From Branchiostoma floridae (taxonomy: Eukaryota > Chordata > Leptocardii > Amphioxiformes > Branchiostomatidae), in assembly GCF_000003815.2 (NCBI RefSeq), contig NC_049992.1, forward strand, positions 12,125,786-12,189,785: 64,000 nucleotides of DNA, read 5' to 3'. Positions within the stretch are counted from its first letter, which is position 1. Each line of letters starts with the position of its first letter. Below, in pieces: positions 3,888 to 63,430 of this stretch. The notes beneath the pieces are model-generated. The model saw only the letters and a program-made list of their open reading frames with translations, made no database searches and was not told the origin of the DNA. The translations under genes were made by a program, and so were the position numbers.

Positions 3888-14581
<10,694 letters not shown>

Positions 14582-18189: not shown

Positions 18190-18666
18190 AGTTTCTTGTG
18201 CTGCACAGTTTTTACTTGCTACTATGATAGAAATCCTTGGAAAGTAGTGAAGCTTTTCTTAAAGCTTGATGTCCTGACAGCTGAGAGATGGATGCATATC
18301 TGAACCAATGACTGCACTATCTTGTCAGATACATGGCAAATGATAGATACAGATGTCAGATACTGTTAGTATCATACCAGAAGGAAGGTATTTTGCATAC
18401 TGTGGTGTTACACAAGTTACATGATTAAAATCAAAGGCTGTTGCAACATTGAAGTCATGATATACATGATTATAAACAGGCTGTCCAACCTGTGTACATG
18501 AATGTACGTGTAGGGTTAATTTTGGCAGTCCAGGTGGCTTCATCATAATATTAGCTTACGAATATCAAATATTGAGATGCATATTGTATATTATAGGTAT
18601 TACACTAAGTGAACCAAAGGCCTCTACCTTCAGTTGTTCGTTCAGGCAAAACTTTATGGCCTTAAT

Positions 18667-19641: not shown

Positions 19642-20276
19642 TCTCTCTATTTTTGTGTGATATGTCCGTGGGATATTTAAAAATTATGGAAAGTAAAACC
19701 CTCCAAGTGTCAAATTATGGATTACTCTAACTGAGATGAGTATTAGATGGGCTGATATAGGTTTTCTTTCAGGTTTGAAGGACAGGCATTTGACTGGCTA
19801 ATCAAAATGTTACATACATTTGACATTTTGTATTGAGGGTGCAAATGCTGCATGATTGTACAATACTCAGTCATGTATTGTATGTGCCACTTTGTTGCTG
19901 GTACAATGTGTGACAAGGGATTACTCCACCATATGACAGGCACAATAGATAAAATTTCATCGTACAGCAGTTGTAACAGGTACAATGTATGACAACATGT
20001 ATGTATGTGTTGGAGAAAAGCGGGCTTTTCTGCCTTCCCTACTTTTTTCTATGTGTGACATTTTTTTGCATTCTGAAGTTAAATTCAAATCACCATAATG
20101 ATTATTACAAATTTTGTAACTAGGACATGGAACAAACATGTTGAAGTAGAAAACCAGAGAAGACTTAGCTGCAGCATAAGGAAAAGTTTCTCCTTCAGGA
20201 ACCATCGTTTTAGATATATTGATTTTTATGTCTTCAAGATTTATAATCTTTTACCCCATGTTACCAGGATCCCGTG

Positions 20277-20364
20277 ATGGAGTCAAAGCAAAGAATCCCA
20301 AAAGGGGCATTGGCACTGGCATTGCTGGTCCTTCTAGGATTCTACAAGGGAGCTTATTCGAAAG
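20277..20364 (+). CDS. Signal peptide exon of adhesion GPCR
   Basis: ATG at 20277 opens 29 codons and one base: a basic start ([10 protein letters not shown]), a hydrophobic core [13 protein letters not shown], then a small-residue region before the donor GTATGG. This is a typical secretory signal. A pyrimidine-rich tract ending TTACCAG at 20267 suggests an upstream, probably untranslated, exon joins at 20268. Ends in phase 1. Confidence 0.8.
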
Positions 20365-23300
20365 GTATGGATTCCCGAAGTTGATTTCAAGACAGTTTTG
20401 GAAATACCTTAAGTTGACGCTTGTCTTTACCTGGTTGAAAATTAAAGACTTAAAATATAATTTCTTTCTGTTTCATGCCTGTATTATAGATTAATTCTGT
20501 AATTTTTGCTATACATGCTATATTTTTCTGAAGCCCACTTGAAGGTTCAAGATAGCATTTTTTAATACCACTATATGAATTTTCATCACCCAGTAAATTG
20601 CCAGGAGGGAAATGGCGTATCCTACCGAGGAACAGTCTCTGTGACTGAAACAGGCAAGACGTGTCAGCGCTGGGACAGTCAGACGCCTCATAAACACGAC
20701 ACGACACCCGCTAAATATCCGTCATCAGGGCTGGAGGAGAACTACTGCCGGAATCCGGACGGCTGGCACGAGATTTGGTGCCTCACCATGGATCCCAACA
20801 CCTGGTGGGAGCGTTGTGACATACCAGACTGTGGTAAGGTCTGATTACCAAAAGACCTGCTGTTTGTAACTTCTGTATTAATGATCACAGATCCACATGT
20901 AAGGCTAGTTTACCTTTATCCGCAGGCCCGGGATATCCTTTATCCGTTGTATTCAAGACTGTTTCAAACTAAATACCTAACAAAAATGCAATTTGGAACC
21001 ACTGACCATCGACTTGATATCCCTAAATTTTTCCCTGTTTGTAAGTAAAACTAATATTAGGTTACCTCGCGGATAATGGTGAACTAGCATTACACTTTTT
21101 ATATTTCAGTATATCTAAGTTCTATATTTATGTTGTGTTATTAGTACACTTTTGATTGGATTGTGTTTCAATCAATTAAGTTAACTTCTTCTGCTATTCA
21201 TTATTCGTTATGTATGATCACTTCTTTAGTTTGACCTCTGACCTCTGCTTATTATTTTACGCTAATTATCCGCTAATTATCCGCTTTTGATGTTAAGTTG
21301 TTTCTTTTTCATTTCATGTATGTCATTTATTCTTATTATTATGACTCCAGGAAGAGTAGTGGCATGATTTTATGATGTACACTAATGGAGATCGCAATAA
21401 AACAAACAAACAAACTTCTTCTAGATAAAAAATTACCTGTATACACCAAATAATAGCCACATAAGCAACTGGACAAGATTTTGGACACAGTCAGACATTT
21501 CATGTAGCCTCCACTACCTTTCATCAGTGACACTGAGCAGACCTTTTGAAGAGCAGTAGTCATAGGAACCAAAACTGCTGCAAGTCAGACAAATTCAAGA
21601 CAAGGTTGATGCAAATGACTTGATGCAAATGGGTCAAATAGCTCCTGTTTGAGTGCAGGAGTTAATGTTGTCTTGCAGGGGTGAGAGCGCCAGGTTCCAA
21701 GTTCTGGAAAGTTTGGTACAATTAGGCCTCCTTTCCTACTGAAAATTCTCTTATGTGCTGTCTCTTTATCCAAACCAGCAGGGTTCGTGGTCAAGGATAT
21801 CAGAATTCTGTGGATTTGAGATTGAAATAGTGTCCATGTATATGCACTAGGCTCGTTCTCATTTAAATGTCGAAATGCTGTTGCCTGACTTTACGGCTTG
21901 ATATGGAGAAAATTATACTATGACAACATCACTGGTTCCTTCATTTGTCCATAACCCCTGTAATGTTTTACAAAAGATGCACAACAACATTCGTATTGTT
22001 TGATGACTTAGAAGATTATTATAGCCACGGGTGGGATTTCACACCCTAAAAAATGGCTGTCGCCTGAGAAGAAACGAAGAATTCAAATAGTAGCCAAAAT
22101 CTAACAATTCAGTTCCCAGAATGATTGTTCGGTAGGTAAAACCAGCTGACCAGGCCCTCTGACCGATCACGTCAGATCGCTCCTATCACTGATCTTGGAG
22201 GCTGTGTGAGGTGGTTTATGCCTGTTGCCAGATTCTGTAACAAACGTTACCACCACGAGTATGATGGTTGCCACGGTTTTATTATCCACGTATAAGACTA
22301 GAAATGCCAGTTTTTGTGACGCTGTACAGTTTTTCTCGCTTCCTAAAGAAACAAGAAAGGGTTGTTGACTGTTATTTGTATCCCACCTTGCTTAACAAAA
22401 TGTTGTACAGAAATGACTGTAACAAACGTTACCATTGTTCGATGCTGTCTTAGCTTTCTATCTGACCTGGTATAAAAAAGCTGCCCACTTTTCAAATGTC
22501 CATTGGGACATCCACTTATACCTAAATGATGTAGTCAATAAGGTAAGTCCTTTAGAAGAAAACAGGGTTTACTGTTGTAACAAACGTTACTGGTAACGTT
22601 TGTTACCTGCCCTGTAATGTATTACCAATGGGACCGAAAATAATAAGTTGCCATTTTTTGGCTACGGTTAAAAGAGGAATTTTCCTAAACAACCAGGTAG
22701 TTTTCACTGAAAATAAAGCCGATTTATTTTTCGACCCAAAAAATGCCATTTTCGACATTTCAATGAGAACGAGTGACTAATGAGTGCATACTTGGAGTGT
22801 GGGGGTTCGAGCTTTGGTAGCCAGTTTTTGTAGCCACACTTGTCTATTTTGTTTTGGCTTTGAGGTAATTGTGTTGTCTCCCCAGTGGAAGAGACTTTTA
22901 ATCACTGCCTGAATTTGTGTTTCAATCAGTGGTGCATGAGATTTGAAGGCCAGATACTGGTCATTATTGCAGGTTGCTATCCTTCTCTGTGATAGTAAGT
23001 GTCTAGCATAGGGATCATGACTAGACTCCTGTGTGAACTTGATGTTGTCATCTACAGTCAAACCTGTCTATAGCGGCCACTCAAGGGACGGGACAAATTT
23101 GGCCACTATAGACAGGTGGCTTCTGTATAGAGGTGGTAACTTGTAGATAAAATACCCAAGGGACCGACAAAAAGTGGCCACTATGGACAGGTGGCCCCTC
23201 TGTAGAGGTGGCCCCTAATACAGGTTTGACTGTACCTGGTTGATATAGTGAAACAATCAATGAAATAAGTTTGCAACCAGCGACACAACATAGAGTACAG

Positions 23301-26300
23301 AACTAAGCCTCCTCAAGCCCTTCTTTGTTATCTAATTTATCTATTGTGATTGGAGGTTTGAAACTCAAGCTCCTATTTTTATTGATCTTTGATAATAAAA
23401 GAATTAACCCAATGACTCCCACCCCGGACACTCTTTTTTTGCTTGATCATGAAAACATTGCCTTACCTTCATCATGTAAATTTCATGTGCTGCTTGGTGT
23501 AAGTGAAGTTGACTGGCCAATTTTTCACCTCACACCTCACATCTGTCCTACTATTATTTAGACCACTTGTGATCATTTGTGCATTTAGCCTACGGATATG
23601 GACATGCAATAAAGATTATTATCATTCTTCTCCACAAGATTACAATTGGCTGCAGAGATCCAGTGACTGGGCAATTGACGCAACAGTAACACAGTGGCCC
23701 CAAGCTGCTGGTGCCGACAAAGTTCTTGACGGTAATTATTATTCCCACTGGAACCCAAGTGGTCGAGGCCCGTGGTACATCATCTTCGACCTTGTTGGGC
23801 CTTACACACTTTCTAAGATCGGCATCACCAACAACGGAGACACAACCCATGACATTTCAAAGTTCCGGCTCCAAACATCGGTAACGTCTGATCCATACAA
23901 CTGGGAAGACGTGGTGACAGTAACAGATGTGGCAGCTTCATCTGAGTTACAGGAATTTGGGGGCTTCTCCGCCACCGGTCGATTCTGGAAATTCAATGCC
24001 ACAGAAACATATGGGACCTGGCAGCCTTGGTTACGAGAGGTGAACTTCTTTGGAGCAAGGGCAGGTAGGTTCATTTCAAGCTCTAACATTTCATGTAGCC
24101 ATCAATGATAGTGTACAATTTGACTAGTGCATTATCAAGCATACAAAATGTACAAGAGAAGTGTTTATCCCAGTAAATCAGTTGTTTTTTGAGCTGTCCC
24201 ATAAGCTCTTGATCCTGTTTTATTAAGATTAGTGAGATCAGATTTATGCAGCATTTAGTAACAGCATAGTTGTAAATGCCTATTATTATAGAGGCTTTGC
24301 AATTATATTAGAGTGTCATAATGTTTATGTATGTGTGCATAAGCTTACACTGTGATCATTGTCATTCTATAACACATGTCAATCTGAGCCAGTTTTCTTC
24401 AGGGCAACTTGTGACCATGTTGCTATTTTAAACCAATGTATCATAATTTTCAATCACGATTTGCCTTAAATTTGCCTCTTCCAGACGAGTTCCTATTGCA
24501 CTGATCAAATCTTGATACTGTGTAGTCAGCTTTTCACTGTGTACATTTGTGGTACCTACACAATGTAGCTCTTGACTATGATCAAAGAGGTATCCTTATA
24601 TTTATGCAAGTTCTGGCCATGTGGAATCTTCTGCTTGCTAAATTCAGAATCTTATTGTAATAAAAATTGTAGTCATGACTAATTCTAGTCAGGTCACAGA
24701 ATGTTGGGAAAGGTATTAGTGACCATACCTAATGGTATTTGAAAACTTTTCATATTGGTGTGCTTGAATAAGGTACATGTGTGTACCATAGCCTGTAAAT
24801 AAAAGTGTCCGCAATGAATATATCAGTTTGCTTCCAACGAGGTTTTTTACTCTGTATCAGATTCTGTATCTGTATCCATATAGCCGATATAACCGCCCTT
24901 TGGCATAACACACCAGCTGCCTTTCAAGTTAAACTGCAGGTTGGAGTGCATAGTGTTTTTGAGTCATTCTGTAAGCCAACCTTGATGGTCCTTGATTGAA
25001 GCCAAAATGCTGCTCATTTTTTTTGGAAGGCACCCCAGCTGTAGATTTTGTCTAATTCATTCTCTGGAAAGAATCATCATGGCTGCATGATGTTGTATAA
25101 ATTGCTTGTGTACATCGTCCCATGTTCCGTGTTTAAAGGCTTGTGGCCATTTTATTTAAGGAAAGACAGTTGTGAAGTTTATTGGTTTTTAGAATAACTA
25201 TTGAGTCTTGGTACATTTGTACTGGCATGGATTGTTTGCTGTTCAGTTGGAGGATAGAGAGTACCATGAATAGTTTGATCAGGTTAGTGAGTCACTGAAT
25301 AAAGAGACTCTTTTTACACAACCCTTTATTTCCAGCACCAACGTTTCCTTACACGTACACTCAGTAAAATGTAATAACTAATCCATCACCCAATGTAGGA
25401 CCAGTTGGTACCAGTGCTTTAGTGAAGGTTGACCATCTACATTGTACTCCATGTCTGAAAGGTTTTCCTTTAGGAAATGAAACCTTTAATGCTGAATATT
25501 GCGACTCAAGGATTTTACTCAAGACAGCTTGGTCATTGAAGGCTTAAAAAAGGCTGACTTTTGCTGGACATTGCAGTTCAACTGATATGTTCCTAGCAAA
25601 TTCTACATGCTTTTATTTTAGGAGCTGACATGTGTGGACTGTCAACATTTCGCCACGTCCCACAAACCGACTGTTACAGTGATGACAATTTGGCCATCCA
25701 CTATGGTGTAACCCTCCAGTTCTGTGCAGTTGCCTGCTGTGCAGCGTCCTCATGCCTGTCCTTTCAGTTCAACTCCGGCTCCAGCTGCTATTTGAAAAGA
25801 AAGCTCTGCTCCGATGAGGAGAAAGTGAGCACAGCAGTCGGGAACATGTACGATTGGTCTTTAGTATCAACCCAAGGTTTGTGCACATCCTCATCTTTTG
25901 TCATAGGGAATCATCATCACATTTCTTTTGTACATATAGTTTATAGACATGATGTTAAGGTTGTCAAACGATGTCTTAGTTTGATCTTGTTGCAAAGCTC
26001 CTCATGACAGGTGTATTAAGCATTGCATTTTCCAGATCTCTAAGATTAAGCAGTCTAACCCAAGGATACTAGTAACCCCAAATTTTGATATCATTTGCCA
26101 TCTTGAGAGAAAGAGGGCCTTCGAAGAAATGAAAGAGACTTATTAGTATAGAAAAAGAAGAAAAGATATAATTGACGTATGGTAATGATGTTATAGTCAG
26201 ATAAGCTTCATACAGGAAAGAATATGCTAGACCCTTGGATACCTGTTAAGCCAGGTAATCATACGTCATAATGTATATCAGCTTGTACACATTAAAAGTA

Positions 26301-56300: not shown

Positions 56301-59300
56301 TAGGAAAAATTTCTTTCTATATGGCATGTAAAGGAAAGGAACAAGCTTTCAACTTTTAATACACTGTACTTTTAATGACTTCAAGAGCTGCTCCATTTTC
56401 AAGATCTTGCAGCCCATCAGGAGGGGAGTTAATTTATTTTAGATTTCTGTGCCCCTGTGTAACTATGATGATTATATCATGGCCTCACCTCTCCCATCTC
56501 AGAGTAGTTAACCCTACTGAATGTTTATGTTCATAGTACATGGAGGGTGGTCATCCTGGTCAAACTTCACAAGCTGCTCAGCAACCTGTAATGGAGGCAG
56601 CCAGACACGGAGCCGTAACTGTTCCAACCCTATCCCCCGACATGGTGGTCGAACCTGTGCAGGGCAACAGTTACAGACTGCTCAGTGCAACCTACAGAGT
56701 TGTCCAGGTTTACTCATTTACTAGTATCATTTAGCAAATGCTACTCATTGTCCACATTCAAAAGAATCATAATTGTCTAATTTATGATTTGAAATGATAT
56801 CAACCAATAATCTCCAAGCAGATCCTACGGTGCCCTAAGATAGTATCAAAGCTGGCCAAGGAGTGTAGCCGACCAAGGGAGTCAAACGGGCACCTACGGA
56901 AAGTTTGATACTATACATTACGCACCGTGGATCTGGTTCGAGATTAATCAACCAAGTGCAGATCAGAACGCAGTGGTCAGTGATTTGATTTAGTTTTCAT
57001 TTTCTGTTAATCCATCGAACAAAACTTTATTGACAAGCTGATGGCAAAGCACAAAAAGTTTAATTGTATCTTAAGTCAGTGTGTGGCCTTTTCAATCCAG
57101 ACTAAGATTGTTAGCGTTGACTTATCACAGAAGTTAACAATCTTTTTTGCTCTCCCTGAAGTGCCGGTGATATCAGCGTGGATGTCCTGGTCTGCCTTTG
57201 ACGACTGTTCTGAGACCTGTGGTGGTGGACTACAGATCAGGAGAAGACAGTGCAATGGTTCATCATGTGTTGGAGAGGCTGAGGAAATAAGAGAGTGTCA
57301 TGAGGAGCCTTGTCCAGGTTCAGATGTTTGAAAATTTGTTTTTAGTTGTTAAGGTTGTGTGATATTTGTAACATCAAAGCTCTTTAGTAACATTATGTAA
57401 TGATAGATATTCTGACTGTGGCGAAAGAGAGAGAAGACTTAATGAAAAAGAATAATTGACAAGACATTTTTGTGTCTCATATCTAAAACGGTAACATAGG
57501 AAATTTTGTGACATCATGCAACAACAGCTTGCAATGTCATACTTTCACAAGTCAGCATAAGTTCCTCTGTTGCTTTGAATTCTCCTTTCGACTGTGGTCA
57601 AAATCTTCTTTACAGAACTATGCAGATAAAAAAAAATTACTAAATTAATATCACAATGTATGAAACTTTTGAAAACAGTTGACATATTTCTTCCACTCTG
57701 CAGCTAATGGTACATGTATTAAGACCAATAAAATTTCTATTTTTAAAAGTCCATGGAGGATGGTCCATCTGGAGTCTATTCACTGCCTGCACGGTGACCT
57801 GTGGTCCTGGTAACCAGACCAGAACACGCAACTGTACCAACCCTGAACCTGCACTGGGAGGCAATAGCTGTCCTGGAGATGATGATGGACATGGACATGA
57901 AACACAGATCAGGGATTGCTTTTTGAAAGAGTGCCCTGGTATGTTCTTAAAAAATCTTCCCTTATGCAATGTAGATTAAGATAAAGGCTGTGTATTATAT
58001 ACAATGTAGTCTGTCTGGAACTTTGCAGGAATAAGATTTCACAAATGATGTGCAAGAATCTATGATCTGTAAGACTGGCTTCGATGTAATGATAATTATA
58101 ATGCATTGAGTAAAATTGCATGTGAAGATGGTCCAATCTTACTTTTCTTATTAGCTTTTGAATTTTGGCAACATATTTCACTAAAAGATGTGGTAGATTT
58201 ATACCTGTCCAGTACAATGAAAATAGTTTATTTTGACCTTAATGTATAATACCCAACCTTGTTCTACAGCCTTGCCTCCACCACCTACATGGTCTGAATG
58301 GTCTCCATTTGGCCCCTGTTCTGTGAGCTGTGATAATGGCACTCGGCAGAGGCATCGAAATTGTTCATCGGAAAACTGTGAGGGACCTGACATAGATGTC
58401 CAACAGTGTTTCCCATACCCCTGCTATGCAAGTAGGTTTCACAACCCTCTTATTGATTGTCTTGTTGTAACGTCTGTTGTAACAGTACTGTACTTTGCAT
58501 AATTTCCCCATCACAAATTATATATTATGCATGCATCTTAATGTTATTTTGCAATGTGCATTCTCTATAGCCCCTCCCGTAGATGGCATGTGGTCAGCTT
58601 GGTCGGAGTACAGTCAGTGTACGGTAACTTGTGGAGGAGGAGTGATGCAACGTACACGGGAATGTGCGGACCCTTCACCGACACACGGTGGCAGGCCATG
58701 TGAGGGAGACAGAGAGGGTCTCGGGATGGAGGTCCAGTATCTTGCCTGCAATCTAGCAGCCTGCAACGCATCAAGGCCTCCTCCTGACAATGTTGGAAGT
58801 TGGTGTCCTTTTCTTTTACCATAATTACTACTGGAAGGGATAATATGTGCATGTAGCTTTAGATATTGGAATACACAGCCTCGGCAGTTGCTAACATGAT
58901 CTTGGAAATACAACATTATCTTGGAAACAGAATAGCCACACTGAACGCTTAGAAAACCTAACAATATTAAGAATACATAAAGTTTTGCTTAGCAGGAAAC
59001 TTTGAATAGGATTATACTTATAGCCTTCAATTTCATGGGTAATCTAACTAAAATCCTGTTGTTACGTTGACAGTGTGCCCAACAGTGATAGGAACAAACA
59101 ATCAGGCCTGGCCAGAAGCTGCTGCTGGGGCCGTACAAACAGTCATCTGCTATAGAGGTGGGTTAACTTCATAACTTGATCAACATCCGACTTTCTTTAA
59201 ATCTACTAAATAACTCCTCTCTTTTTCCTACCCTTCCACATGGTCTCAAGCACCCATAGCTCACAGACTCATCCTAGTTCTCAAGGTACAGTAGGGCTAA

Positions 59301-62300
59301 CGGTGAAGAAAACTGTCTTTCAACGTCTTTATTCATGCTCTATTATATGTATCAATATATAGATAATGTACTTTGTTTATCATCCATGTTTGATAGACTT
59401 GTCACACAACTATACACAAGGAAACAGCTAATTAATGACATGTTGTGTAGTGGCCATAAGTCATTATAATAAGAGAGCTTAATAATGATGATTGACCACT
59501 TCCAGGTGTGGCCAGACGGAAGTGCAGTGAATACTCTCAGTGGGAGGCAGAGGACTTCCAAGACTGTGTGTCTGAGATCATGGCAGAGTTTGTGGATAAG
59601 GTAATACATGTACCAACATATTAGAAAAAGATTTTTAGTGTGTCCTGTGTGTCCAAATCTTATCCAAGTGTGTCCAAGTGTTATGGAGCCTTGATTTAGT
59701 ATTCCAAGATAATAATAAGCAACATGACATTAAATGAGAAACAAGAGAGAGAAACCTAGTGCAAGAGCATCAGTAAGACAGTATTGGGTTCAAGGGTTCT
59801 GTAGAATACATAGCGTACATTGTGTCTTTTTCTGTTTCAGCTAAATGGACCTCTCCAAGATAATCTAATCCCAGTACAAACAGTCCAAAATTTGGAGGCA
59901 AGCCTGGTAGCTGGGGAAGCCTCAGGGTTTGGGGATGTCAGCGCTGCAGCAAAGGTTATAAAAACACTGTCACAGGGAGACCTTCTCAATGTGGCAGATG
60001 GGACGCTTTCAAATAAAGACACGTTCATAAGGGTATGTGACACTGACATTTTAAGAGCAGATAAGGCCACACCAATTTAATTTCTTGGTTCACGGATTCG
60101 CTCGCTCCTATTTTTTGGGAAAAAAAATAAAAATAAAAATTACCACTCAGCAAATTTTCACCATTAATGAAACCATTCACCAAGTTTCTGGTGTAGCAAA
60201 CATAAAAACTGACACTACTTTTGTAATTTTCAATGAACAGGTGCTGTTACTGTACAGTAATAGTGTTTTTGTACTTTTTTCAAGCTGAAAACTTTTTATT
60301 CTTTATGTTTTGGATTAGCCCTTACCTTTACCCCAACCATTTTACAATTTTTATTTTTATTTCGCCCTCTCGCTCCATATTTTTTATGAAAAAATCCGTG
60401 AACCAAGAAATTAAATTGGTGTGGCCTAACGATAAAAAATAAGCTTCTATCAGATATATCAACTCTGCCATATCCTTTTCAGCTTGAATGAGGCATGAAA
60501 ATTTTAGGAACAGAATGTTTCAAGCGAAATATGGTCCCTACAGTTTGTTACAATTCCGTAAGCTTTTTGTACACTTACTGAGTTTTATCATGTACATTAT
60601 TTTATAGGGGCTTGTTGGAAGTGTTGATTATCTACTACCAGATGAAAATGGAGACTTTTGGCCCACCAGCAAGCAGGTAAGGCTAATGCTGCTGTAGATA
60701 CTTTCCCCCACAATGTAAGTTTTATGCAGCAATTATACTTCATCTGTCAGCAAATACAACATGCAATCTCTTATTTCACATATCTATTAATAAGTGTACA
60801 TGAATCAATGTATAATTTCTGCAAGACTCTGCAATTTGTCTTGCTATTTGAGGACCTGCAATGTAGTGATTGTAAGAAATACCTGACAACCAAGGAGCTA
60901 GGAGTTGGCACTGTCCATGGTGCTGAATATTGGGTTAACATCCTCTGCTGGTTAGCTGATACATGTTGCACCTTATATCTTATAATTCTTAATGTATCTT
61001 GAAGATGCCTTTTTAATATGCTTTTTAAAAAGCAGCAGGATTCACAGTGTTACCATGTAAGAAGTTCATTTTATTATTTATTCTGATAATACATTCACTG
61101 TAAGGAAACAATAGATGACATTATCTGTGAACTATTCCTATACTACAGAAAGATGCAAAGGATCATGTGACGTCACTTATCAACTCAATGGATGATTTTG
61201 GTTCCTCGATTGTGAACTACTTGTCTAATGTCGGAGAGGACTACGTCACAGTGCATAAGAAAAATATAGGTAAGTGTTCCTTTTTCTGCAAGACAGATAA
61301 GCACACACTTAAGATAATGAATTTCAAATAGTTAAATTTGAAGTTGTATATCAATTCTATATTGTTATCTCACTGTTTGAGTTTACTTTCTTTCCTATCT
61401 TGCTGACGAGTTCACATACAAGTAGGGTTACACTTCATCATCATCATTACACTTTTTACATTACACTTAATTCTATCTAATAGTGGCAAATAGAGAAAAA
61501 AAAGCCCCTTAAGTGAGATTTTACATTTGCCATTATATGTTTTGAACTTAAGACTGCAGGGAAAGAGGGAATGCAAACAACTTGTTTATTTTTTGTTGTT
61601 GTTAGAACTGGATGCAGCTGTAGTCCCAGCAAGACAGCTTCTGGAGTCCGTAACACAGCCGAGACCCCCCACATGGGGTCCAGCACCACCGGACAAGAGC
61701 AAGATCACAATTCCAGCAGAGGCCTTTGCTGAAATCTTGACGAGTTATCCAGGTAAGCAAGGACAACAGTTACAAATGTTGCTATTCTTGCATGTGGCCT
61801 AGACAGTGCAAAGGGCTTGACAAGCTAGTATTTTTTTCAATGACATATTTGTTTGTTTAACTCCAGAGGAAGAGGTGAGCAGCATTGGAGTGGTCACTTA
61901 CAAGATGATGCACTTTGACAAGATTTTGGAGAGTAACAACATACAAAGGTGAAGAGCTCTATAGTGCCAGGAAATCTAATGTTATTTCTGTTGTCAGTTG
62001 TGCATAGTTGTATTGTTATGCCTCTAACAAAATGAAGCATTTTATGAATGATGCATAGATTTAATATTTTTGTTAATAACAAGTTAAGATTGAGTTAAGC
62101 TGCTGAAGCTACTATTACCTTTGAGTGTAACATTCTCCAGGCATATCTATGGGAATCGGACATTGAACGGCCCTGTCTTGAGTACCGTCATCTATCCTCC
62201 ACCAAAAGAGGCACTGCTCAATCCTGTTACCATCAAGATACACCACACAAAAGTGAGGCTTTTTGGCATACAGTGTATATGATCATGTTGATTTACATAG

Positions 62301-63430
62301 AGGCACTTATTTTTCCTTTGCATTTATGCAGAATTTTCTACATATTAATTTGAGCCTCCTTGCAAACTGGTCATCTCAGAAAGATTACATTTTTTGTCAG
62401 TTTTTTACCTCCTTCTTTGTTGTATTCAGAGCTTGATTACATTTGCACTCATGTCATAATTTTTTAAGATTTATTTTTCTCCACTTGTTGTAGATGGCGA
62501 AGAACCCGCTATGTGTGTACTTGGACTATGAAGACCAAAATCGGTATGTACAATATTCCATGTAGTTGAACATCATTTCCCCTTGTGTGCTATTAAAGCT
62601 ATCGTTTGAGGCAGTGACAACAGTCCCATTTTGAGGTTATTGAAGCTGTTATGGACAGGTGTACTTTCTCTGTGGTTATGAAGAAATCATGGCCAACCAA
62701 TTTTCAAAGTCTGCACAAGTTACTATTCACATCAGAGGCATATTTCACAAAAGCTACCTACTACATTTATAGGAATCATGAAATGTTTTGTTTCTATTCA
62801 AGATGCATACTCAATGCATGTGTCATTATTACACAGTTTATTCAACCCATCTGGGTGTGAGGTGAGGGAGAGGAAGAAGTCCTACACCATCTGCCAGTGT
62901 TTCCACCTCACAGCGTTTGCTGTCTTAACAGAACTGGTCACACCAGTAAGGGCTTTCCTGCATTTACAACACTCACGTAGTCCAAGATATTATTTTGCAG
63001 TCTTCTCGTTTTCTTGTGATCGTCAATGTTAGTTTTACAACATTTTTACATATTTAATCGCCGATATTTTTTTCTTACAGGAACCAAAAGTCATGTTACC
63101 GACTACTAACCTTCCATGGATTGGCCAGGTTGTTGCCATGGCAACACTGAGCATTACACTGCTGATCTTCCTATGGCTCAGGTATATTGTTGCCTACACA
63201 GTTCCTGACAGTTTGACAGTTGTCTTTACTTCATTTTAAAATGTAACAGGGCAAAATCAAACAATAGCTAGGAGCGAAACCTAACATGGAGAAATCTTTT
63301 GTTAATAATATTTTTTTTCAATTTCAGAACTCACCTGGATACATCTGGTTACCTATTCCTACTCCTCACAGTCTGTCTGTTGGCCATTGAGGTCACCATC
63401 TTTGTAGGGATGGAAAAAACAGACAAATGG
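20277..63430 (+). CDS. Giant mosaic adhesion G-protein-coupled receptor (3' truncated by window)
   Basis: About 65 exons join in consistent reading phase from a signal peptide to the second transmembrane helix, giving about 3,820 residues before the right edge. The C-terminal order TSP1 x6, HRM, GAIN, GPS ([12 protein letters not shown]), TM1, TM2 defines an adhesion GPCR; domains N-terminal to this are listed separately. The receptor should sit in the plasma membrane, self-cleave at the GPS and signal through G proteins via its tethered Thr-Ala-Phe peptide. The exons show no in-frame stop, poly(A)-like break or second signal-peptide exon required by phase. Two N-gaps lie inside; 40523-40622 removes the end of one coding exon. 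TM3-TM7 and the tail are outside the window. Human ADGRB (BAI) receptors share CUB/TSP1/HRM/GAIN order but lack the lectin, kringle, FN3 and CPW-WPC parts. That it is a single transcript is inferred. Confidence 0.85.
20594..20833 (+). CDS. Kringle domain (residues ~30-109)
   Basis: One phase 1-1 exon encodes a complete kringle with six cysteines in canonical spacing and the landmarks [32 protein letters not shown] and CDIPDC. The lysine-binding anionic pair, usually Asp-x-Asp after NP, reads D-G-W here, so plasminogen-type lysine binding is doubtful; a Trp-Trp pair precedes the fifth cysteine. It is the most N-terminal module of the receptor. Confidence 0.95.
20899..21094. mobile_element. MITE with GCTAGTTYACC ends, copy A
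   Basis: Inverted ends GTAAGGCTAGTTTACCTTTA and TAATGGTGAACTAGCATTAC delimit 196 bases. A second copy is at 45365-45583, sharing TTTATCCGTTG and the GACTTGATATCC / GACTTCATATCC core. Intron after the kringle exon. Confidence 0.7.
21230..21415. mobile_element. LINE 3'-end-like fragment
   Basis: The segment ends GACTCCAGGAAGAGTAG ... CACTAATGGAGATCGCAATA followed by (AAAC)n. This resembles the 3' untranslated tail of CR1/L2-type retrotransposons in invertebrate genomes, where short 5'-truncated copies with simple tails are common. No reverse transcriptase remnant is seen. The left limit is approximate. Confidence 0.45.
21420..21572. mobile_element. GATTTTGGA inverted-repeat element, degraded copy
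   Basis: Contains CAAATAATAGCC, GCAACTGGACAAGATTTTGG and GTCAGACATTTCA, matching the left arm of the elements at 31305-31467 and 42905-43420. The right arm is not intact. Confidence 0.5.
21852..22773. mobile_element. 922-base TIR element with palindromic GTAACAAACGTTACC repeats
   Basis: Ends are CTCGTTCTCATTTAAATGTC and GACATTTCAATGAGAACGAG, about 25 bases of inverted repeat. Inside, the near-palindrome GTAACAAACGTTACC occurs at 22237-22251 and 22419-22433, and as a facing pair at 22577-22607. No open reading frame resembles a transposase, so it is probably non-autonomous. It lies in the intron between the kringle and first F5/8C exons. Confidence 0.65.
23053..23234. mobile_element. Pogo/mariner-like MITE with TA flanks
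   Basis: TACAGTCAAACCTGT at the left and ACAGGTTTGACTGTA at the right form 15-base perfect ends including TA dinucleotides. The interior has repeated GTGGCCACTATRGACAGGTGG. Such ends with TA duplication are typical of pogo/Tc1-mariner-derived MITEs. Confidence 0.75.
23639..24064 (+). CDS. F5/8 type C (CBM32-like) domain (residues ~110-251)
   Basis: A 142-residue phase 1-1 exon. Landmarks of the galactose-binding-like beta-sandwich are [42 protein letters not shown] and the C-terminal WLREVNFFG. It has no cysteines, unlike the disulfide-bonded discoidin copies later in the protein, so it resembles CBM32-type carbohydrate modules. The specificity cannot be read. Confidence 0.85.
25622..25876 (+). 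CDS. PAN/apple-like domain 1 (residues ~252-336)
   Basis: An 85-residue phase 1-1 exon with eight cysteines, including [16 protein letters not shown] and CYLKRKLC, which matches the alpha-helix plus strand core of PAN/apple modules. Such modules mediate protein-protein or protein-glycan contacts. Donor GTTTGT is weaker than neighbours but phase-consistent. Confidence 0.75.
26375..26788 (+). CDS. Fucolectin (FTP) domain 1 (residues ~337-474)
   Basis: A 138-residue phase 1-1 exon of the eel fucolectin/tachylectin-4 fold: [44 protein letters not shown] and LCEVEVYE. It keeps R-x-D-x(4)-R, the C-terminal part of the fucose-binding signature, but no His at the usual distance upstream, so fucose binding is possible but not assured. 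Confidence 0.92.
27164..27586 (+). CDS. Fucolectin (FTP) domain 2 (residues ~475-615)
   Basis: A tandem homologue of the preceding domain in one 141-residue phase 1-1 exon, with [47 protein letters not shown] and LCEVEVYGG. The fucose-contacting Arg in RxD is replaced by His and the following basic residue is lost. It has therefore probably diverged in ligand. Confidence 0.92.
28217..32293 (+). CDS. IgGFc-binding-type region with Asp-rich metal motif (residues ~616-1086)
   Basis: Six exons: 28217-28392, 28839-29076, 29797-29955, 30299-30504, 30732-30853 and 31782-32293, with phases 0, 1, 1, 0, 2, 1. The protein matches the repeat-like N-terminal region of IgGFc-binding proteins: [76 protein letters not shown] and [13 protein letters not shown]. 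The last exon adds [16 protein letters not shown] and [14 protein letters not shown], an Asp-rich putative calcium-binding motif that often follows this domain in deuterostome surface proteins. The biochemical role is unknown; the family is linked to mucosal and gel-forming secreted proteins. Confidence 0.88.
30178..30207. repeat. (AATAC)n microsatellite
   Basis: Five copies of ACAAT/AATAC in the intron between two IgGFc-region exons. Confidence 0.9.
31305..31467. mobile_element. GATTTTGGA inverted-repeat element, copy 2
   Basis: TATCTTTCGTCAGTGACA and CACTGGCGGTGTCGC surround stacked GACAGTGTCACT palindromes. The right end TTTCCAAAATCATATAAGG matches the family at 42905-43420. Lies in the intron before the last IgGFc exon. 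Confidence 0.55.
33000..35230 (+). CDS. Discoidin (F5/8C) domain (residues ~1087-1243)
   Basis: Exons 33000-33181, 34739-34888 and 35092-35230, with phases 0, 0, 1. This is a canonical discoidin domain: [78 protein letters not shown]. The first and last cysteines form the expected disulfide pair. These domains bind phosphatidylserine, collagen or glycans. The first intron carries a tandem repeat and the 253-N gap. Confidence 0.95.
33685..34022. repeat. Local tandem duplications adjoining an assembly gap
   Basis: A block of about 57 bases starting ATGTCATACAT recurs near 33685 and 33789 (period 104). A 43-base block containing GTAATACTTGTAGGATTGG recurs near 33862 and 33980, the second copy ending at the N run. 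Repetition probably caused the gap. Confidence 0.75.
34023..34275. other. Assembly gap (253 N)
   Basis: A run of 253 N in the intron between the first two discoidin exons. Those exons join correctly in phase 0, so no coding sequence need be missing. Confidence 0.99.
34290..34700. repeat. Dispersed repeat-like segment
   Basis: The text around GGCTGTCTCTCGGATAGG, GAGGTCCCGTGTTTGAG and GTTAAAGAACCCACCACAC resembles a family of short interspersed sequences in marine invertebrates, with a degenerate B-box-like GGTCCCGTGTTTGAG. The block CACCTGAGT-GCGGCCGAATG / CACCTGAGTTGTGCAAAATG is repeated about 60 bases apart. The class is uncertain. Confidence 0.35.
35621..36321 (+). CDS. C-type lectin domain 1 (residues ~1244-1382)
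   Basis: Exons 35621-35789 (phase 2) and 36074-36321 (phase 1). A long-form CTLD with [55 protein letters not shown] and YICEV. The calcium-site motif EPN reads EPS and WND reads WVD, so classical mannose or galactose binding is unlikely to be intact. Confidence 0.95.
36344..36530. mobile_element. Long near-perfect palindrome (foldback MITE)
   Basis: Arms of about 80 bases (36344-36421 and 36449-36530) mirror each other: TACCCCCCTCACATTAGGCG ... CGCCTAATGTGAGGGGGGTA, with GATTCGATC, GAGCTC and GGCATGACCCTGA inside. The ends read TATA. The low divergence between arms suggests a recent insertion. It is only 22 bases downstream of the donor of a C-type lectin exon. Confidence 0.8.
36873..37076 (+). 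CDS. Short orphan module between the lectins (residues ~1383-1450)
   Basis: A 68-residue phase 1-1 exon with [38 protein letters not shown] and SWYIGQDVG. The pattern of Gly-Thr-Tyr, R-P-V-Y-K, a Tyr strand, then W-x-I-G recalls a small beta-rich module seen repeatedly in protist and invertebrate surface proteins, but no named family is assigned. It has a single cysteine and may be only the N-terminal half of such a unit. Confidence 0.75.
37119..37215. repeat. Foldback MITE-like element, copy B
   Basis: GATTTCTACCAGGG ... CTTGCTGCCCT and its inverse AGGGCAGAGAGTGCAAGGAG ... GGTAGAAATCGG meet at AAAA. It matches the outer ends of the element at 440-655. Confidence 0.7.
37856..39157 (+). CDS. 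C-type lectin domain 2 (residues ~1451-1580)
   Basis: Exons 37856-38123 (phase 2) and 39036-39157 (phase 1). A CTLD with [57 protein letters not shown] and FICQI. No EPN/QPD and no WND motif is present, so calcium-dependent sugar binding is not expected. The 912-base intron carries a GC-richer, promoter-like stretch. Confidence 0.93.
38556..38608 (+). promoter_or_regulatory. Promoter-like motif cluster inside an intron
   Basis: CRE-like TGACGTAA (38556-38563) lies about 25 bases before AAAATGGCGGGAAAATGGC (38587-38605), which overlays YY1-type AAAATGGC and E2F-type GGCGGGAAAA. CG dinucleotides are frequent from about 38310 to 38610. It is a possible internal transcription start within the C-type lectin 2 intron. 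Inference from motifs only. Confidence 0.3.
39623..39733 (+). CDS. Linker exon after C-type lectin 2
   Basis: A 37-residue phase 1-1 exon with [27 protein letters not shown] and a single late cysteine. Acceptor TTTGTGCAG and donor GTATGG fit. No domain is recognised; it may be a partial module or spacer. Confidence 0.65.
40405..41534 (+). CDS. Discoidin (F5/8C) domain, interrupted by gap (residues ~1618-1758)
   Basis: Exon 40405 runs into the N gap at 40523 after NSPSG. Exons 40985-41137 (phase 0) and 41384-41534 (phase 1) continue with [53 protein letters not shown] and MRVDVLG. The end of the first exon and its donor are hidden, probably about a dozen residues. The usual first cysteine (C-x-x-P-L-G) is Asp/Glu/Asn, and the last (L-G-C) is Leu, so the conserved disulfide is absent as a pair. 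Confidence 0.9.
40523..40622. other. Assembly gap (100 N) inside a coding exon
   Basis: Exactly 100 N, a common placeholder for a gap of unknown size. It removes the 3' end of the first exon of the second discoidin domain. Confidence 0.99.
41894..42181 (+). CDS. SUEL-type galactose/rhamnose-binding lectin domain (residues ~1758-1854)
   Basis: A 96-residue phase 1-1 exon with eight cysteines in the D-galactoside/L-rhamnose lectin pattern: [52 protein letters not shown]. The YGR and DPC-x-G-T-x-K-Y-L motifs of rhamnose-binding lectins are retained, so sugar binding is plausible. The same domain occurs in latrophilin-type adhesion GPCRs. Confidence 0.95.
42655..42801 (+). CDS. Thrombospondin type 1 repeat 1
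   Basis: A 49-residue phase 1-1 exon starting [10 protein letters not shown], with six cysteines and [17 protein letters not shown]. The W-x-x-W C-mannosylation motif is present. The O-fucose site C-x-x-S/T-C-G is altered (Tyr). Confidence 0.92.
42905..43420. mobile_element. GATTTTGGA inverted-repeat element split by a nested transposon
   Basis: Left arm CAAATAGTAATTACTCAAGC then GGATATGATTTTGGA; right arm TCCAAAATCATATCC ... GAGTAATTACTATTTG. The right arm is interrupted at 43069-43382 by another transposon. Stacked GACAGTGTCAGTGACAGTG lies at the centre. Relatives are at 21420-21572 and 31305-31467. Confidence 0.75.
43069..43382. mobile_element. Non-autonomous TIR transposon, copy 3 (nested, inverted)
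   Basis: Ends CAGGGCTCAAAAT and ATTTTGAGCCCTA with GGTGCACC-type subterminal palindromes. The core is the reverse of the one at 6402-6762. Flanks are CAGTT (43064-43068) and TAGTT (43383-43387), consistent with a 5-base duplication with one later change. Confidence 0.8.
43945..44091 (+). CDS. Thrombospondin type 1 repeat 2
   Basis: A 49-residue phase 1-1 exon: [20 protein letters not shown] then four further cysteines. It carries both the W-x-x-W C-mannosylation motif and C-S-I-T-C-G for O-fucosylation. Confidence 0.93.
44495..45953 (+). CDS. MAM domain (residues ~1953-2102)
   Basis: Exons 44495-44611, 44732-44885, 45204-45315 and 45887-45953, with phases 1, 2, 0, 1. MAM landmarks are [55 protein letters not shown] and [21 protein letters not shown]. 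The first intron is GC-AG: AAG then GCAAGA at 44612, and no GT donor restores phase. MAM domains act in cell adhesion and receptor dimerisation. Confidence 0.85.
45365..45583. mobile_element. MITE with GCTAGTTCACC ends, copy B
   Basis: Ends TAGCGCTAGTTCACCTTTAT and ATAAAGGTGAACTAGCGTTA. An internal GGTTTCAAATTTG / CAAATTTGAAACC palindrome lies near the centre. Related to 20899-21094. In a MAM intron. Confidence 0.75.
45718..45805. repeat. Two-copy tandem repeat (about 43 bases)
   Basis: GTACAATGTAGTTGTA(C/A)TTG followed by CTATGTAAGTAGCTGT occurs twice in a row in a MAM intron. Confidence 0.8.
46458..46643 (+). CDS. CPW-WPC domain (residues ~2103-2164)
   Basis: A single 62-residue phase 1-1 exon between the MAM and CUB domains. 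It reads [25 protein letters not shown], an [11 protein letters not shown] helix-like stretch, and ends VRWPC. This is six cysteines in about 61 residues, with the paired CP-x(n)-W and WPC motifs and conserved aromatics that define the CPW-WPC family, described from Plasmodium surface proteins and other alveolates. Its function is unknown. The exon has normal splice sites (TTCTCAG / GTGTGT) and is in frame with its neighbours, so it is an integral part of the receptor. The assignment rests on motif spacing recalled from the family; no profile search was run. Confidence 0.8.
46770..46969. mobile_element. 200-base MITE
   Basis: Inverted ends CATAATTTCACCAGGTGCCA and TAGCACCTGGTAGAATTATG, followed inwards by ATACCGCCAC / GTGGCGGTAT. 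No coding capacity. Lies in the intron after the CPW-WPC exon. Confidence 0.75.
47256..47450. mobile_element. MITE with TACTGTAAATGC ends, copy B
   Basis: Ends TACTGTAAATGC and GCATTTACAGTA. The interior has four copies of ACCGCGAAATTAAATC and TTCGCGG, a CG-rich pattern unlike the surrounding intron. Related to 4349-4565. Confidence 0.75.
47514..48363 (+). CDS. CUB domain (residues ~2165-2287)
   Basis: Exons 47514-47602 (phase 0) and 48084-48363 (phase 1). CUB hallmarks are [49 protein letters not shown] and [11 protein letters not shown]. The Asp residues of the calcium-site motif around KDSLTFYDG are retained. BAI1 and BAI3 also carry a CUB domain N-terminal to TSP1 repeats. Confidence 0.94.
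48925..49194 (+). CDS. PAN/apple-like domain 2 (residues ~2288-2377)
   Basis: A 90-residue phase 1-1 exon with [36 protein letters not shown] and a final cysteine. The helix with Cys-x3-Cys and the following Cys-Trp-Gly-Tyr strand resembles PAN/WSC-type modules. The family call is tentative. Confidence 0.6.
49618..50193 (+). CDS. PAN/apple-like domain 3 (residues ~2378-2469)
   Basis: Exons 49618-49766 (phase 0) and 50067-50193 (phase 1). The layout is homologous to the preceding domain: [20 protein letters not shown], then AYTWI and KCYGR, ending KYSGIKV. It differs from domain 2 by an internal intron. Confidence 0.6.
50581..50829 (+). CDS. Fibronectin type III-like domain 1
   Basis: An 83-residue phase 1-1 exon with [32 protein letters not shown], a TIYVRAFE strand and a VVTATTS ending typical of FN3 boundaries. 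It lacks the strong core Trp, so it is a divergent copy. Confidence 0.65.
51152..51853 (+). CDS. Fibronectin type III-like domain 2
   Basis: Exons 51152-51294 (phase 0, weak donor GTTACT) and 51700-51853 (phase 1). Features are [27 protein letters not shown], then [18 protein letters not shown] and a terminal Thr/Ser-rich strand. The FN3 core Trp (IKW) and the G-L-x(2)-G-x-x-Y motif are present. Confidence 0.7.
52042..52689 (+). CDS. Fibronectin type III-like domain 3
   Basis: Exons 52042-52172 (phase 0) and 52563-52689 (phase 1): [20 protein letters not shown], then [20 protein letters not shown] and VTLTVTT. Between them 52475-52495 (21 bases, phase 0-0, flanked by CTTCAG and GTATGT) could be a micro-exon adding DVELQLK. 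Confidence 0.78.
52706..53160. repeat. Degenerate minisatellite in FN3 intron
   Basis: About ten imperfect copies of a unit near 40 bases, with core CTTGGTGCTGAA and ACCTTCCATATTGTTCTGTC. Two more copies occur at 53715-53770. The tract gives a long but meaningless plus-strand reading frame. Confidence 0.85.
53508..54053 (+). CDS. Fibronectin type III-like domain 4
   Basis: Exons 53508-53616 (phase 2) and 53893-54053 (phase 1): [32 protein letters not shown], then [20 protein letters not shown] and TLTVC. The FN3 core Trp and Tyr are present. Confidence 0.82.
54340..54779 (+). CDS. Fibronectin type III domain 5
   Basis: Exons 54340-54494 (phase 0) and 54638-54779 (phase 1): [31 protein letters not shown], then [18 protein letters not shown] and a QATG end. 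It shares the two-exon structure with FN3 domains 2-4. Confidence 0.85.
55034..55360 (+). CDS. Fibronectin type III domain 6 (last)
   Basis: A single 109-residue phase 1-1 exon: [20 protein letters not shown], a hydrophilic insertion rich in Asn/Lys, [30 protein letters not shown]. It is the clearest FN3 of the series. An internal near-repeat ([17 protein letters not shown]) suggests a small tandem expansion in the loop. Confidence 0.88.
55937..56128 (+). CDS. Thrombospondin type 1 repeat 3
   Basis: A 64-residue phase 1-1 exon: [25 protein letters not shown], and three later cysteines. It has an extra Gly-Ser before the first cysteine and a longer middle loop than its neighbours. C-S-K-S-C-G is an O-fucose-type site. 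Confidence 0.88.
56537..56707 (+). CDS. Thrombospondin type 1 repeat 4
   Basis: A 57-residue phase 1-1 exon: [42 protein letters not shown]-x-x-W is retained. The glycine after the second cysteine is Asn, which weakens the O-fucose consensus. Confidence 0.94.
56808..56946. mobile_element. MITE-like inverted repeat
   Basis: TAATCTCCAAGCAGATCCTA with CGGTGCC at the left and GGCACC/GCACCGTGGATCTGG with GAGATTA at the right form imperfect inverted ends. An inner AGTATCAAA / TTTGATACT pair is also seen. Lies between TSP1 exons. Confidence 0.55.
57162..57317 (+). CDS. Thrombospondin type 1 repeat 5
   Basis: A 52-residue phase 1-1 exon: [39 protein letters not shown]. It has a valid O-fucose site (C-S-E-T-C-G) and W-x-x-W. 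Confidence 0.94.
57750..57938 (+). CDS. Thrombospondin type 1 repeat 6
   Basis: A 63-residue phase 1-1 exon: [34 protein letters not shown], an Asp/His-rich loop, and CFLKECPG. W-x-x-W and C-T-V-T-C-G are retained. Confidence 0.94.
58270..58431 (+). CDS. Thrombospondin type 1 repeat 7
   Basis: A 54-residue phase 1-1 exon: [38 protein letters not shown]-x-x-W is retained. C-S-V-S-C is followed by Asp rather than Gly. Confidence 0.93.
58571..58798 (+). CDS. Thrombospondin type 1 repeat 8 (last)
   Basis: A 76-residue phase 1-1 exon: [43 protein letters not shown], then a Pro-rich spacer. The donor (GTTGGT at 58799) is weak but is the only nearby one in phase 1. The HRM domain follows directly. 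Confidence 0.92.
59074..59600 (+). CDS. HRM (hormone receptor) domain (residues ~3402-3460)
   Basis: Exons 59074-59157 (phase 1) and 59506-59600 (phase 0): [41 protein letters not shown]. This fits the HRM pattern (Cys, Trp, Ala-Gly, Cys-x-x-Gly, Arg-x-Cys, Trp, Cys). It sits just before the GAIN domain as in BAI, CELSR and latrophilin receptors. The first acceptor forces phase 1, since phase 0 meets a stop. Confidence 0.88.
59841..62945 (+). CDS. GAIN domain with GPS autoproteolysis motif (residues ~3461-3754)
   Basis: Exons 59841-60032, 60608-60676, 61149-61269, 61606-61752, 61867-61948, 62141-62252, 62494-62543 and 62837-62945, with phases 0, 0, 1, 1, 2, 0, 2, 0. The helical subdomain has the LNGPLQDN region and a Lys/Ile helix. 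The beta part includes [31 protein letters not shown] and VTIKIHH. The GPS has cysteines in [13 protein letters not shown] and [12 protein letters not shown]. The cleavage tripeptide His-Leu/Thr is intact, so self-cleavage is expected, leaving a tethered agonist starting TAFAVL. The two usual GPS tryptophans are replaced (Leu in VYLD, Phe before NPSGC). Confidence 0.92.
60064..60427. mobile_element. 364-base TIR transposon in GAIN intron
   Basis: Ends AGGCCACACCAATTTAATTT and AAATTAAATTGGTGTGGCCT, continuing inwards through CTTGGTTCACGGATT and its inverse, about 34 bases of inverted repeat. The AT-rich core has no coding capacity. Confidence 0.8.
63081..63430 (+). CDS. Transmembrane helices 1 and 2 of 7TM_2 domain (partial)
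   Basis: Exons 63081-63181 (phase 2) and 63328-63430 (phase 0). The first gives [20 protein letters not shown] (TM1) following the tethered peptide. The second gives [20 protein letters not shown] (TM2) and an extracellular MEKTDKW start. Spacing and the short first intracellular loop (RTHLDTSG) fit secretin/adhesion GPCRs. TM3-TM7 lie beyond the right edge. Confidence 0.88.

What the first reader, a model, noticed from the sequence alone, without database searches (positions are those of the whole stretch)
20277..63430. A giant adhesion GPCR with at least fourteen kinds of extracellular domain
Phase-continuous exons link a signal peptide to kringle, F5/8C, PAN, fucolectin, IgGFc-binding, C-type lectin, SUEL, TSP1, MAM, CPW-WPC, CUB, FN3, HRM and GAIN/GPS domains and the first two transmembrane helices. 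Adhesion GPCRs with diverse N-termini are known, and amphioxus is known to have expanded them. This combination, with about 3,750 residues ahead of TM1 and four lectin-type folds, is not one I recognise from any described receptor. It could be a multi-ligand sensor of glycans, lipids or microbes coupled directly to G-protein signalling.
Basis: partly seen in the sequence, partly recalled or inferred. Interest (0 to 1): 0.87.

Follow-up and report, generated by a model that had tools for sequence, protein, structure and literature searches.

The report
Giant many-module adhesion GPCR
A lancelet-like genome appears to encode one very large cell-surface receptor that joins about a dozen kinds of sugar- and protein-binding module, one of them otherwise described from malaria-type parasites and their kin, to an ordinary adhesion-type G-protein-coupled receptor.

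Summary
In 20277-63430 I built 65 exons in consistent phase. Over curated Pfam cut-offs: kringle, F5/8C, F-type lectin, IgGFc-binding, C-type lectin, SUEL, TSP1, MAM, CPW-WPC, CUB, FN3, PAN (barely), GAIN and GPS. HRM is below its cut-off. Exons past the window complete the seven-helix bundle (7tm_2 3.3e-25). The GPS keeps HL|T and a tethered-agonist-like TAFAVLTEL. So this is an adhesion GPCR with about 3,750 residues before TM1, if it is one gene. That is likely, not proven: 32 of 33 module boundaries are phase 1, so phase continuity is weak evidence; my gene-splitting test has little power; no transcript was available. Kringle, C-type lectin, discoidin and CUB on amphioxus adhesion GPCRs were reported in 2008 (PMC2246102, passages); the combination is a new variant. 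Least expected is CPW-WPC, which the literature seen calls specific to apicomplexans and chromerids: two models match, and it is the only match in the genome. Some N-terminal exons have 60-83% identical copies elsewhere in the genome, where no GPS match is listed.

The parts
20277..20364 (+). first coding exon, signal peptide ([29 protein letters not shown]), ends phase 1
   Evidence: at the stricter setting the only signal-peptide-like start with a phase-1 donor on the + strand of 20000-63430, against 2 on the - strand of the same span; looser settings give more on both strands
20594..20833 (+). kringle exon, class 1-1
   Evidence: PF00051 3.3e-26
23639..24064 (+). F5/8C domain 1, class 1-1
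   Evidence: PF00754 best stretch 129-241 of a query that scores 2.6e-25 with three stretches; 83% and 82% identical exons on C7 and C16
25622..25876 (+). PAN domain 1, class 1-1
   Evidence: PF00024 21.7 bits vs 21.4 as a lone exon, 17.2 in the longer query; 79% identical exon at C14:9.43 Mb
26375..27586 (+). two F-type lectin (fucolectin) exons, 26375-26788 and 27164-27586
   Evidence: PF22633 1.2e-43, three stretches; PDB FBP32 1.3e-40 and lectin 1k12 6e-22 for the two joined
28217..32293 (+). IgGFc-binding domain and tail, six exons
   Evidence: PF17517 1.7e-73
33000..35230 (+). F5/8C domain 2, three exons; a 253-N gap (34023-34275) lies in its first intron
   Evidence: PF00754 4.7e-26; gap
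35621..36321 (+). C-type lectin domain 1, two exons
   Evidence: PF00059 3.8e-37, two stretches with domain 2
36873..37076 (+). unnamed 68-residue domain, class 1-1
   Evidence: no Pfam match up to E 5; two other weak copies in the genome, 42-43%
37856..39157 (+). C-type lectin domain 2, two exons
   Evidence: second PF00059 stretch
40405..41534 (+). F5/8C domain 3, three exons; first exon broken by the 100-N gap
   Evidence: PF00754 8.4e-17 for the part after the gap
41894..42181 (+). SUEL (rhamnose/galactose-binding) lectin exon
   Evidence: PF02140 3.8e-18
42655..44091 (+). TSP1 repeats 1 and 2 (42655-42801, 43945-44091)
   Evidence: PF00090 6.5e-12, two stretches
44495..45953 (+). MAM domain, four exons (one GC donor after 44611)
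   Evidence: PF00629 3.5e-9
46458..46643 (+). CPW-WPC domain, one class 1-1 exon, six cysteines
   Evidence: PF09717 3.5e-13; TIGR01492 9.8e-12, over cut-off; sole match in the genome, 7 of 7 candidates scored
47514..48363 (+). CUB domain, two exons
   Evidence: PF00431 6.7e-25
48925..50193 (+). PAN-like domains 2 and 3
   Evidence: PF00024 22.8 vs 21.4 bits for domain 2; domain 3 below cut-offs
50581..55360 (+). six FN3-like domains
   Evidence: PF00041 1e-27 with three stretches, PF16656 3.9e-9 with one; the rest assigned by eye
55937..58798 (+). TSP1 repeats 3-8
   Evidence: PF00090 1.5e-52, six stretches
59074..59600 (+). possible HRM, two exons
   Evidence: PF02793 E 0.017, below cut-off: doubtful
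59841..62252 (+). GAIN domain exons
   Evidence: PF16489 1.9e-13
62494..62945 (+). GPS, two exons; HLT at 62904-62912, predicted cut between 62909 and 62910; following TAFAVLTEL as tethered agonist
   Evidence: PF01825 3.5e-10; found independently in the genome scan; letters
63081..63430 (+). TM1 and TM2 exons; TM3-TM7 exons lie 453-1947 bases past the window end (locus L009)
   Evidence: 7tm_2 3.3e-25 for the full bundle; exons

Best explanation
One gene encodes an adhesion GPCR whose extracellular fragment is a string of about 30 modules, most on class 1-1 exons or exon groups, rich in sugar-binding folds. Most likely mechanism: the GAIN domain cuts itself at HL|T and the fragments stay associated. 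When the module string is anchored to glycans, matrix or microbes and pulled, or changes shape, the tethered peptide TAFAVLTEL is exposed and drives the seven-helix bundle to activate a G protein. Shown from sequence: the modules, splice phases, GPS motif, tethered-agonist-like segment and complete 7TM. Inferred: a single transcript, cleavage, ligands and G-protein coupling.
For: 65 exons in phase with no stops; modules by Pfam. GAIN-GPS-7TM matches ADGRL3 at 4.7e-29, and the HLT and the TM3/ECL2 cysteines line up. Both assembly gaps lie inside F5/8C domains whose parts stand on each side. No spacing between neighbouring exons exceeds 2,805 bases, whereas 5.7 kb separates the stop of the upstream PDE6D-like gene (about 14581; GMP_PDE_delta 6.6e-47) from 20277. 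At the stricter setting 20277 is the only signal-peptide-like + strand start with a phase-1 donor in 20000-63430. Downstream, the next recognised gene is a sugar transporter some 30 kb past the window end (Sugar_tr 1.2e-26).
Against: No transcript or orthologue was available. The gene-splitting test is weak: at prices -12, -8 and -4 the program starts the chain at 14689, not 20277, so it also fuses upstream sequence; at -4 it splits once, at the N gap (40655/40675); at -2 it makes ten genes, with breaks near 21.4, 31.4, 36.5, 40.7, 42.8 and 56.3 kb inside the receptor. The strict signal-peptide scan finds 2 on the - strand of the same span, so one hit is not above chance by number. Looser settings give 2 vs 2, 6 vs 7, 5 vs 2 and 15 vs 8, + against -. 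Module-boundary introns are somewhat longer than those inside modules (median 432 vs 302, p 0.015); the longest, 2,805 bases, follows the kringle, so that join is the least secure. The GPS lacks two usual tryptophans (CVYLD, LFNPSGC; pattern recalled), so efficient cleavage is not certain.
Confidence: 0.68

Rival explanations
1. Two or more tandem genes: an upstream secreted or membrane lectin gene (kringle, F5/8C, fucolectin, IgGFcB and so on) and a shorter adhesion GPCR (FN3 or TSP1, GAIN, 7TM), chained by the phase-1 habit of extracellular modules.
For: 32 of 33 module boundaries are phase 1, so chaining across a gene boundary would not break phase. Gene-prediction errors are a known hazard for domain architectures (PMC3927609, passages). 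My own program fuses upstream sequence to the receptor at moderate gene prices and splits the receptor at low price. Kringle and F5/8C exons like the receptor's first two occur near each other on C7, where no GPS match is listed.
Against: No stronger second signal-peptide start; no spacing larger than 2.8 kb; only weak places for a split.
Confidence: 0.26
2. Assembly artefact: contigs of unrelated genes scaffolded side by side.
For: Two N gaps in the chain, of 253 and 100 N.
Against: Each gap is flanked by parts of one F5/8C domain; the last two exons of F5/8C domains 2 and 3 have matching phases and the domains are 40% identical; the rest is gap-free sequence.
Confidence: 0.03
3. A decaying or unexpressed gene.
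For: No expression data; divergent GPS; no close 7TM paralogue.
Against: 65 exons without a stop; 6 cysteines in each of 8 TSP1 repeats; intact CPW-WPC cysteines, GPS cysteines and 7TM.
Confidence: 0.03

Closest known systems
Amphioxus adhesion GPCRs with kringle, somatomedin B, C-type lectin, SRCR, CUB, discoidin (Nordstrom et al. 2008, PMC2246102, passages)
   Same: Adhesion GPCRs with kringle and other adhesion modules ahead of GPS-7TM; 37 reported there, 40 GPS matches here (150 of 195 candidates scored)
   Different: No somatomedin B match listed here; adds F-type lectin, IgGFc-binding, SUEL, MAM, CPW-WPC, PAN and an unnamed domain; I saw no such combination in the passages read
ADGRL3 / latrophilins and other vertebrate adhesion GPCRs
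   Same: GAIN-GPS-7TM; best solved match is ADGRL3, 4.7e-29; latrophilins also carry a SUEL-type lectin (recalled)
   Different: Extracellular region several times longer and mostly of other modules (latrophilin side recalled)
ADGRB (BAI) receptors
   Same: TSP1 repeats, HRM and GAIN in that order (recalled for BAI; HRM doubtful here)
   Different: The modules upstream of the second TSP1 array are not known from BAI (recalled)
C14:9.42-9.44 Mb modular gene of the same genome
   Same: PAN, F-type lectin, SUEL, F5/8C, PAN, then a TSP1 series; F5/8C 60% and PAN 79% identical to this receptor's
   Different: Has a PTPRJ-type TM-proximal domain (1.2e-8); no GPS and no phosphatase match listed nearby
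Apicomplexan CPW-WPC proteins and LAPs
   Same: CPW-WPC domain; a dinoflagellate protein joins two of them to F5/8C and SRCR (PMC11285972, passages)
   Different: Plasmodium CPW-WPC proteins have a signal peptide and repeated CPW-WPC domains (PMC3637178, passages); no GPCR mentioned there

Membership tests
Adhesion GPCR (class B2) | GAIN domain with GPS | tested here: met
   PF16489 1.9e-13, PF01825 3.5e-10
Adhesion GPCR (class B2) | secretin-type seven-helix bundle | tested here: met
   PF00002 3.3e-25 with exons past the window end
Adhesion GPCR (class B2) | cleavage motif H-L/I-T/S followed by a tethered-agonist-like segment | tested here: met
   HLT at 62904-62912, then AFAVLTEL. Motif recalled; cleavage itself not testable here
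Adhesion GPCR (class B2) | long modular N-terminus in the same polypeptide | tested here: inconclusive
   in-phase exon chain, weak split test, no transcript
Adhesion GPCR (class B2) | HRM before GAIN (frequent, not required) | tested here: inconclusive
   E 0.017, below cut-off
Amphioxus kringle/somatomedin-B receptor expansion | kringle domain | tested here: met
   3.3e-26
Amphioxus kringle/somatomedin-B receptor expansion | somatomedin B domain | tested here: not met
   no such family listed at E up to 0.05; the passages read do not say that every member carries it
Amphioxus kringle/somatomedin-B receptor expansion | 7TM groups with that clade | not tested
   clade sequences not in hand; the three other places found by the 7TM query are 29-40% identical over one exon each
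CPW-WPC domain family | score over curated model cut-offs | tested here: met
   PF09717 50.6 vs 23 bits; TIGR01492 45.6 vs 35.6
CPW-WPC domain family | six conserved cysteines | tested here: met
   six in the exon; six stated in PMC11285972
CPW-WPC domain family | occurs in apicomplexans and chromerids (as stated in PMC11285972) | tested here: not met
   here in an animal genome, as a class 1-1 exon between MAM and CUB

The most novel reading that the evidence does not exclude
The receptor carries a genuine CPW-WPC domain, described so far as confined to apicomplexans and chromerids, with one dinoflagellate case, as a single-copy, spliced, class 1-1 module of a chordate adhesion GPCR. That would make CPW-WPC another of the adhesion domains shared between animals and alveolates, with an animal copy that can be used to ask which way it moved. 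In addition, because nearly all module boundaries are phase 1, alternative splicing could deal out receptor versions with different lectin sets from this one gene.
Probability: 0.4. Interest if true: 0.75.

Novelty: new variant of a known kind. Interest (0 to 1): 0.55.

Why it matters
If it is one gene, it is among the most module-diverse adhesion GPCRs I can name, and it shows how far exon shuffling can go while the GAIN-7TM engine stays fixed. It would place several sugar-binding folds (F-type, C-type and SUEL lectins) and an IgGFc-binding domain directly in front of a G-protein switch, which is testable in a lancelet. The CPW-WPC exon would give an animal reference for a domain studied in malaria parasites.

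Tried and rejected
Phase continuity as proof of one gene: rejected as weak after the count of phases. The gene-splitting test as proof: rejected, because the program also fuses 14689-20276 to the receptor at prices -12 to -4. HRM as established: not accepted. A close paralogue of the receptor in the same genome: none found; of 9 matches of the 7TM query 6 are the receptor itself and 3 are other places, 29-40% over one exon each. Stretches of 30 kb at those three places were fetched and modelled. The 4.99 Mb one has Laminin_G_3 and F5/8C pieces; the C6 one reads by eye like cadherin-type repeats before the GAIN; the 14.41 Mb one holds 11,128 N. A phosphatase domain behind the C14:9.43 Mb gene: none among 144 matches (150 of 185 candidates scored). 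Structure of the CPW-WPC exon: AlphaFold2 on the single sequence gave mean pLDDT 45, useless, so no fold search was made; the second structure job was not used. No solved structure matches CPW-WPC by sequence up to E 1. Exons proposed by the program at some stage but dropped by hand: 22535-22542, 22973-22994, 23058-23135, 36362-36469, 39623-39666 (or -39733), 40371-40642, 40842-40884, 56242-56288, 56844 (or 56852)-56975, 61039-61056, 63834-63974, and all before 20277. The exon ends at 28392, 29797, 40405, 42655, 56707 and 57162 were settled by hand. The C-terminal tail past 65947 was not resolved; at price -8 the program ends it at 66158.

Full report
What is there. The window lies in a held 513 Mb genome, at C14:12125786-12189785. 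A simple exon-chaining program with generic splice-site weights and a codon table, first trained on domain pieces picked by eye, followed by hand curation, gave 65 exons between 20277 and 63430. They read as 1,619 + 2,167 residues without a stop, parted by a 100-N gap (40523-40622) that interrupts one F5/8C exon. Without seeds the program recovers 61 of the 65 exons exactly at three of five gene prices (57 and 9 at the two lowest). It scores 742 on the + strand of 14600-66400 against 159 on the - strand and 39-79 on five simulated sequences. The codon table came from these exons, so this is partly circular; the domain matches are the independent evidence.

Modules. In order: signal peptide, kringle (3.3e-26), F5/8C, PAN, two F-type lectins, IgGFc-binding (1.7e-73), F5/8C, C-type lectin, an unnamed domain, C-type lectin, F5/8C, SUEL lectin (3.8e-18), two TSP1, MAM (3.5e-9), CPW-WPC (3.5e-13), CUB (6.7e-25), two PAN-like domains, six FN3-like domains, six TSP1, a possible HRM, GAIN (1.9e-13), GPS (3.5e-10), TM1 and TM2 (some rechecked alone). 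Of the six FN3-like domains three are PF00041 stretches and one a PF16656 stretch; the rest are by eye. The F-type lectins match solved fucolectin-type chains: FBP32 1.3e-40 and 1k12 6e-22. HRM stays below its cut-off (0.017), and PAN is marginal (17.2 to 22.8 bits against 21.4; third copy below). The exon at 36873-37076 has no Pfam match up to E 5 and two weak relatives in the genome (42-43%); one of these, at C14:6.38 Mb, lies beside F-type lectin matches.

The receptor end. Sequence past the window (L009) supplies TM3 to TM7 in phase; the whole bundle matches 7tm_2 at 3.3e-25. GAIN to 7TM matches ADGRL3 at 4.7e-29. The GPS has four cysteines, HLT at 62904-62912 and then AFAVLTEL, so that TAFAVLTEL would be the tethered agonist, but it replaces two usual tryptophans (CVYLD, LFNPSGC; the canonical pattern is recalled). 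The C14:14.41 Mb locus, the best other 7TM match (29% over one exon), shows a similar GPS (CVFLD...LYNPSGC) in a predicted reading, so the two may be kin; that was not tested.

One gene or several. For one gene: both N gaps lie inside F5/8C domains with parts on each side. Spacing between neighbouring exons never exceeds 2,805 bases, while introns inside modules reach 1,557, counting the 253-N gap. The PDE6D-like gene upstream (6.6e-47) ends with a stop at about 14581, 5.7 kb before 20277, and the next recognised gene downstream is a sugar transporter about 30 kb past the window end (1.2e-26). Against: 32 of 33 module boundaries are phase 1, so a chain across a gene boundary would look just as continuous. 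My gene-splitting test has little power: at prices -12, -8 and -4 the program starts at 14689 rather than 20277, at -4 it splits once at the N gap, and at -2 it makes ten genes with six breaks inside the receptor. The strict signal-peptide scan finds one start on the + strand of 20000-63430, at 20277, but two on the - strand, so number alone means nothing; at looser settings the counts are 2 and 2, 6 and 7, 5 and 2, 15 and 8, + and -. What the scan does show is that, of the + strand candidates, none has both a stronger hydrophobic core and a better donor than 20277. Module-boundary introns are somewhat longer (median 432 vs 302, p 0.015). I put one gene at about two in three; the least safe join is kringle to F5/8C.

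Where the modules come from. The first F5/8C exon has 83% and 82% identical copies on C7 and C16. About 5 kb past the C7 copy there are a kringle (64% over 94 residues) and a C-type-lectin-like frame. On the receptor's own chromosome, C14:9.42-9.44 Mb encodes PAN, F-type lectin, SUEL, F5/8C, PAN and a TSP1 series, with the F5/8C and PAN 60% and 79% identical to this receptor's, and a PTPRJ-type TM-proximal domain. No GPS match is listed near any of these places (40 matches, 150 of 195 candidates scored), and no phosphatase match near the last. So these exons circulate among modular genes of this genome, as exon shuffling of class 1-1 modules predicts. The 7TM itself has no close paralogue.

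CPW-WPC. Two curated models match over their cut-offs; six cysteines are present. It is the only match in the genome, all 7 candidates scored. Of 51 papers holding 'CPW-WPC', 40 were listed; going by those titles and the starts of their abstracts they are about malaria and related parasites and their relatives; 11 were not seen. No paper held also holds 'amphioxus', and a search by model accessions gave 2 papers, both on Plasmodium and kin. PMC11285972 calls the domain specific to apicomplexans and chromerids and reports a dinoflagellate protein joining it to F5/8C and SRCR (passages). I cannot exclude that databases already list animal copies, since no animal proteome was searchable. Contamination is unlikely, because the exon is class 1-1 with good splice sites (6.6 and 6.2) between MAM and CUB in gap-free sequence.

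Novelty. Amphioxus adhesion GPCRs with kringle, C-type lectin, CUB, discoidin and SRCR N-termini were reported in 2008 (PMC2246102, passages). A search for papers holding both 'adhesion GPCR' and 'IgGFc-binding' found 0. I therefore file this as a new variant of a known kind, with the CPW-WPC module as the part a specialist would least expect.

Noticed in passing
8803-14581: Exons of a PDE6D-like gene (GMP_PDE_delta 6.6e-47) on the + strand upstream of the receptor, ending in RLFYV and a stop; its first exon was not sought.
   Followed up: partly
C14:12219567-12222753 (end of L011 and start of L012, 29.8-33 kb past the window end): Sugar transporter gene (Sugar_tr 1.2e-26) on the + strand, with a run of about 6,130 N right behind it.
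   Followed up: partly
36873-37076; L045; L046: A 68-residue class 1-1 domain (roughly Y.L...S.DRPVY...YFY...W..G in L046) with no Pfam family; in L045 it lies near F-type lectin matches, in L046 an EGF-like frame follows.
   Followed up: partly
C14:9420000-9437200 (L057, L050, L056): Large modular gene with PAN, F-type lectin, SUEL, F5/8C, PAN, many TSP1 and a PTPRJ-type TM-proximal domain, sharing similar exons with the receptor; no phosphatase match listed nearby.
   Followed up: partly
C14:14413000-14442999 (L038-L040): A gappy adhesion-GPCR-like locus whose predicted GPS reads CVFLD...LYNPSGC...CHCSHLQTAYALL, sharing the loss of the two GPS tryptophans; it is not among the 40 GPS matches listed.
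   Followed up: no
C3:27.69-27.75 Mb: A dense cluster of IgGFc-binding domain matches, several with internal stops.
   Followed up: no
52724-52999: Imperfect 33-base tandem repeat (8.2 copies) in an intron between FN3 exons.
   Followed up: no
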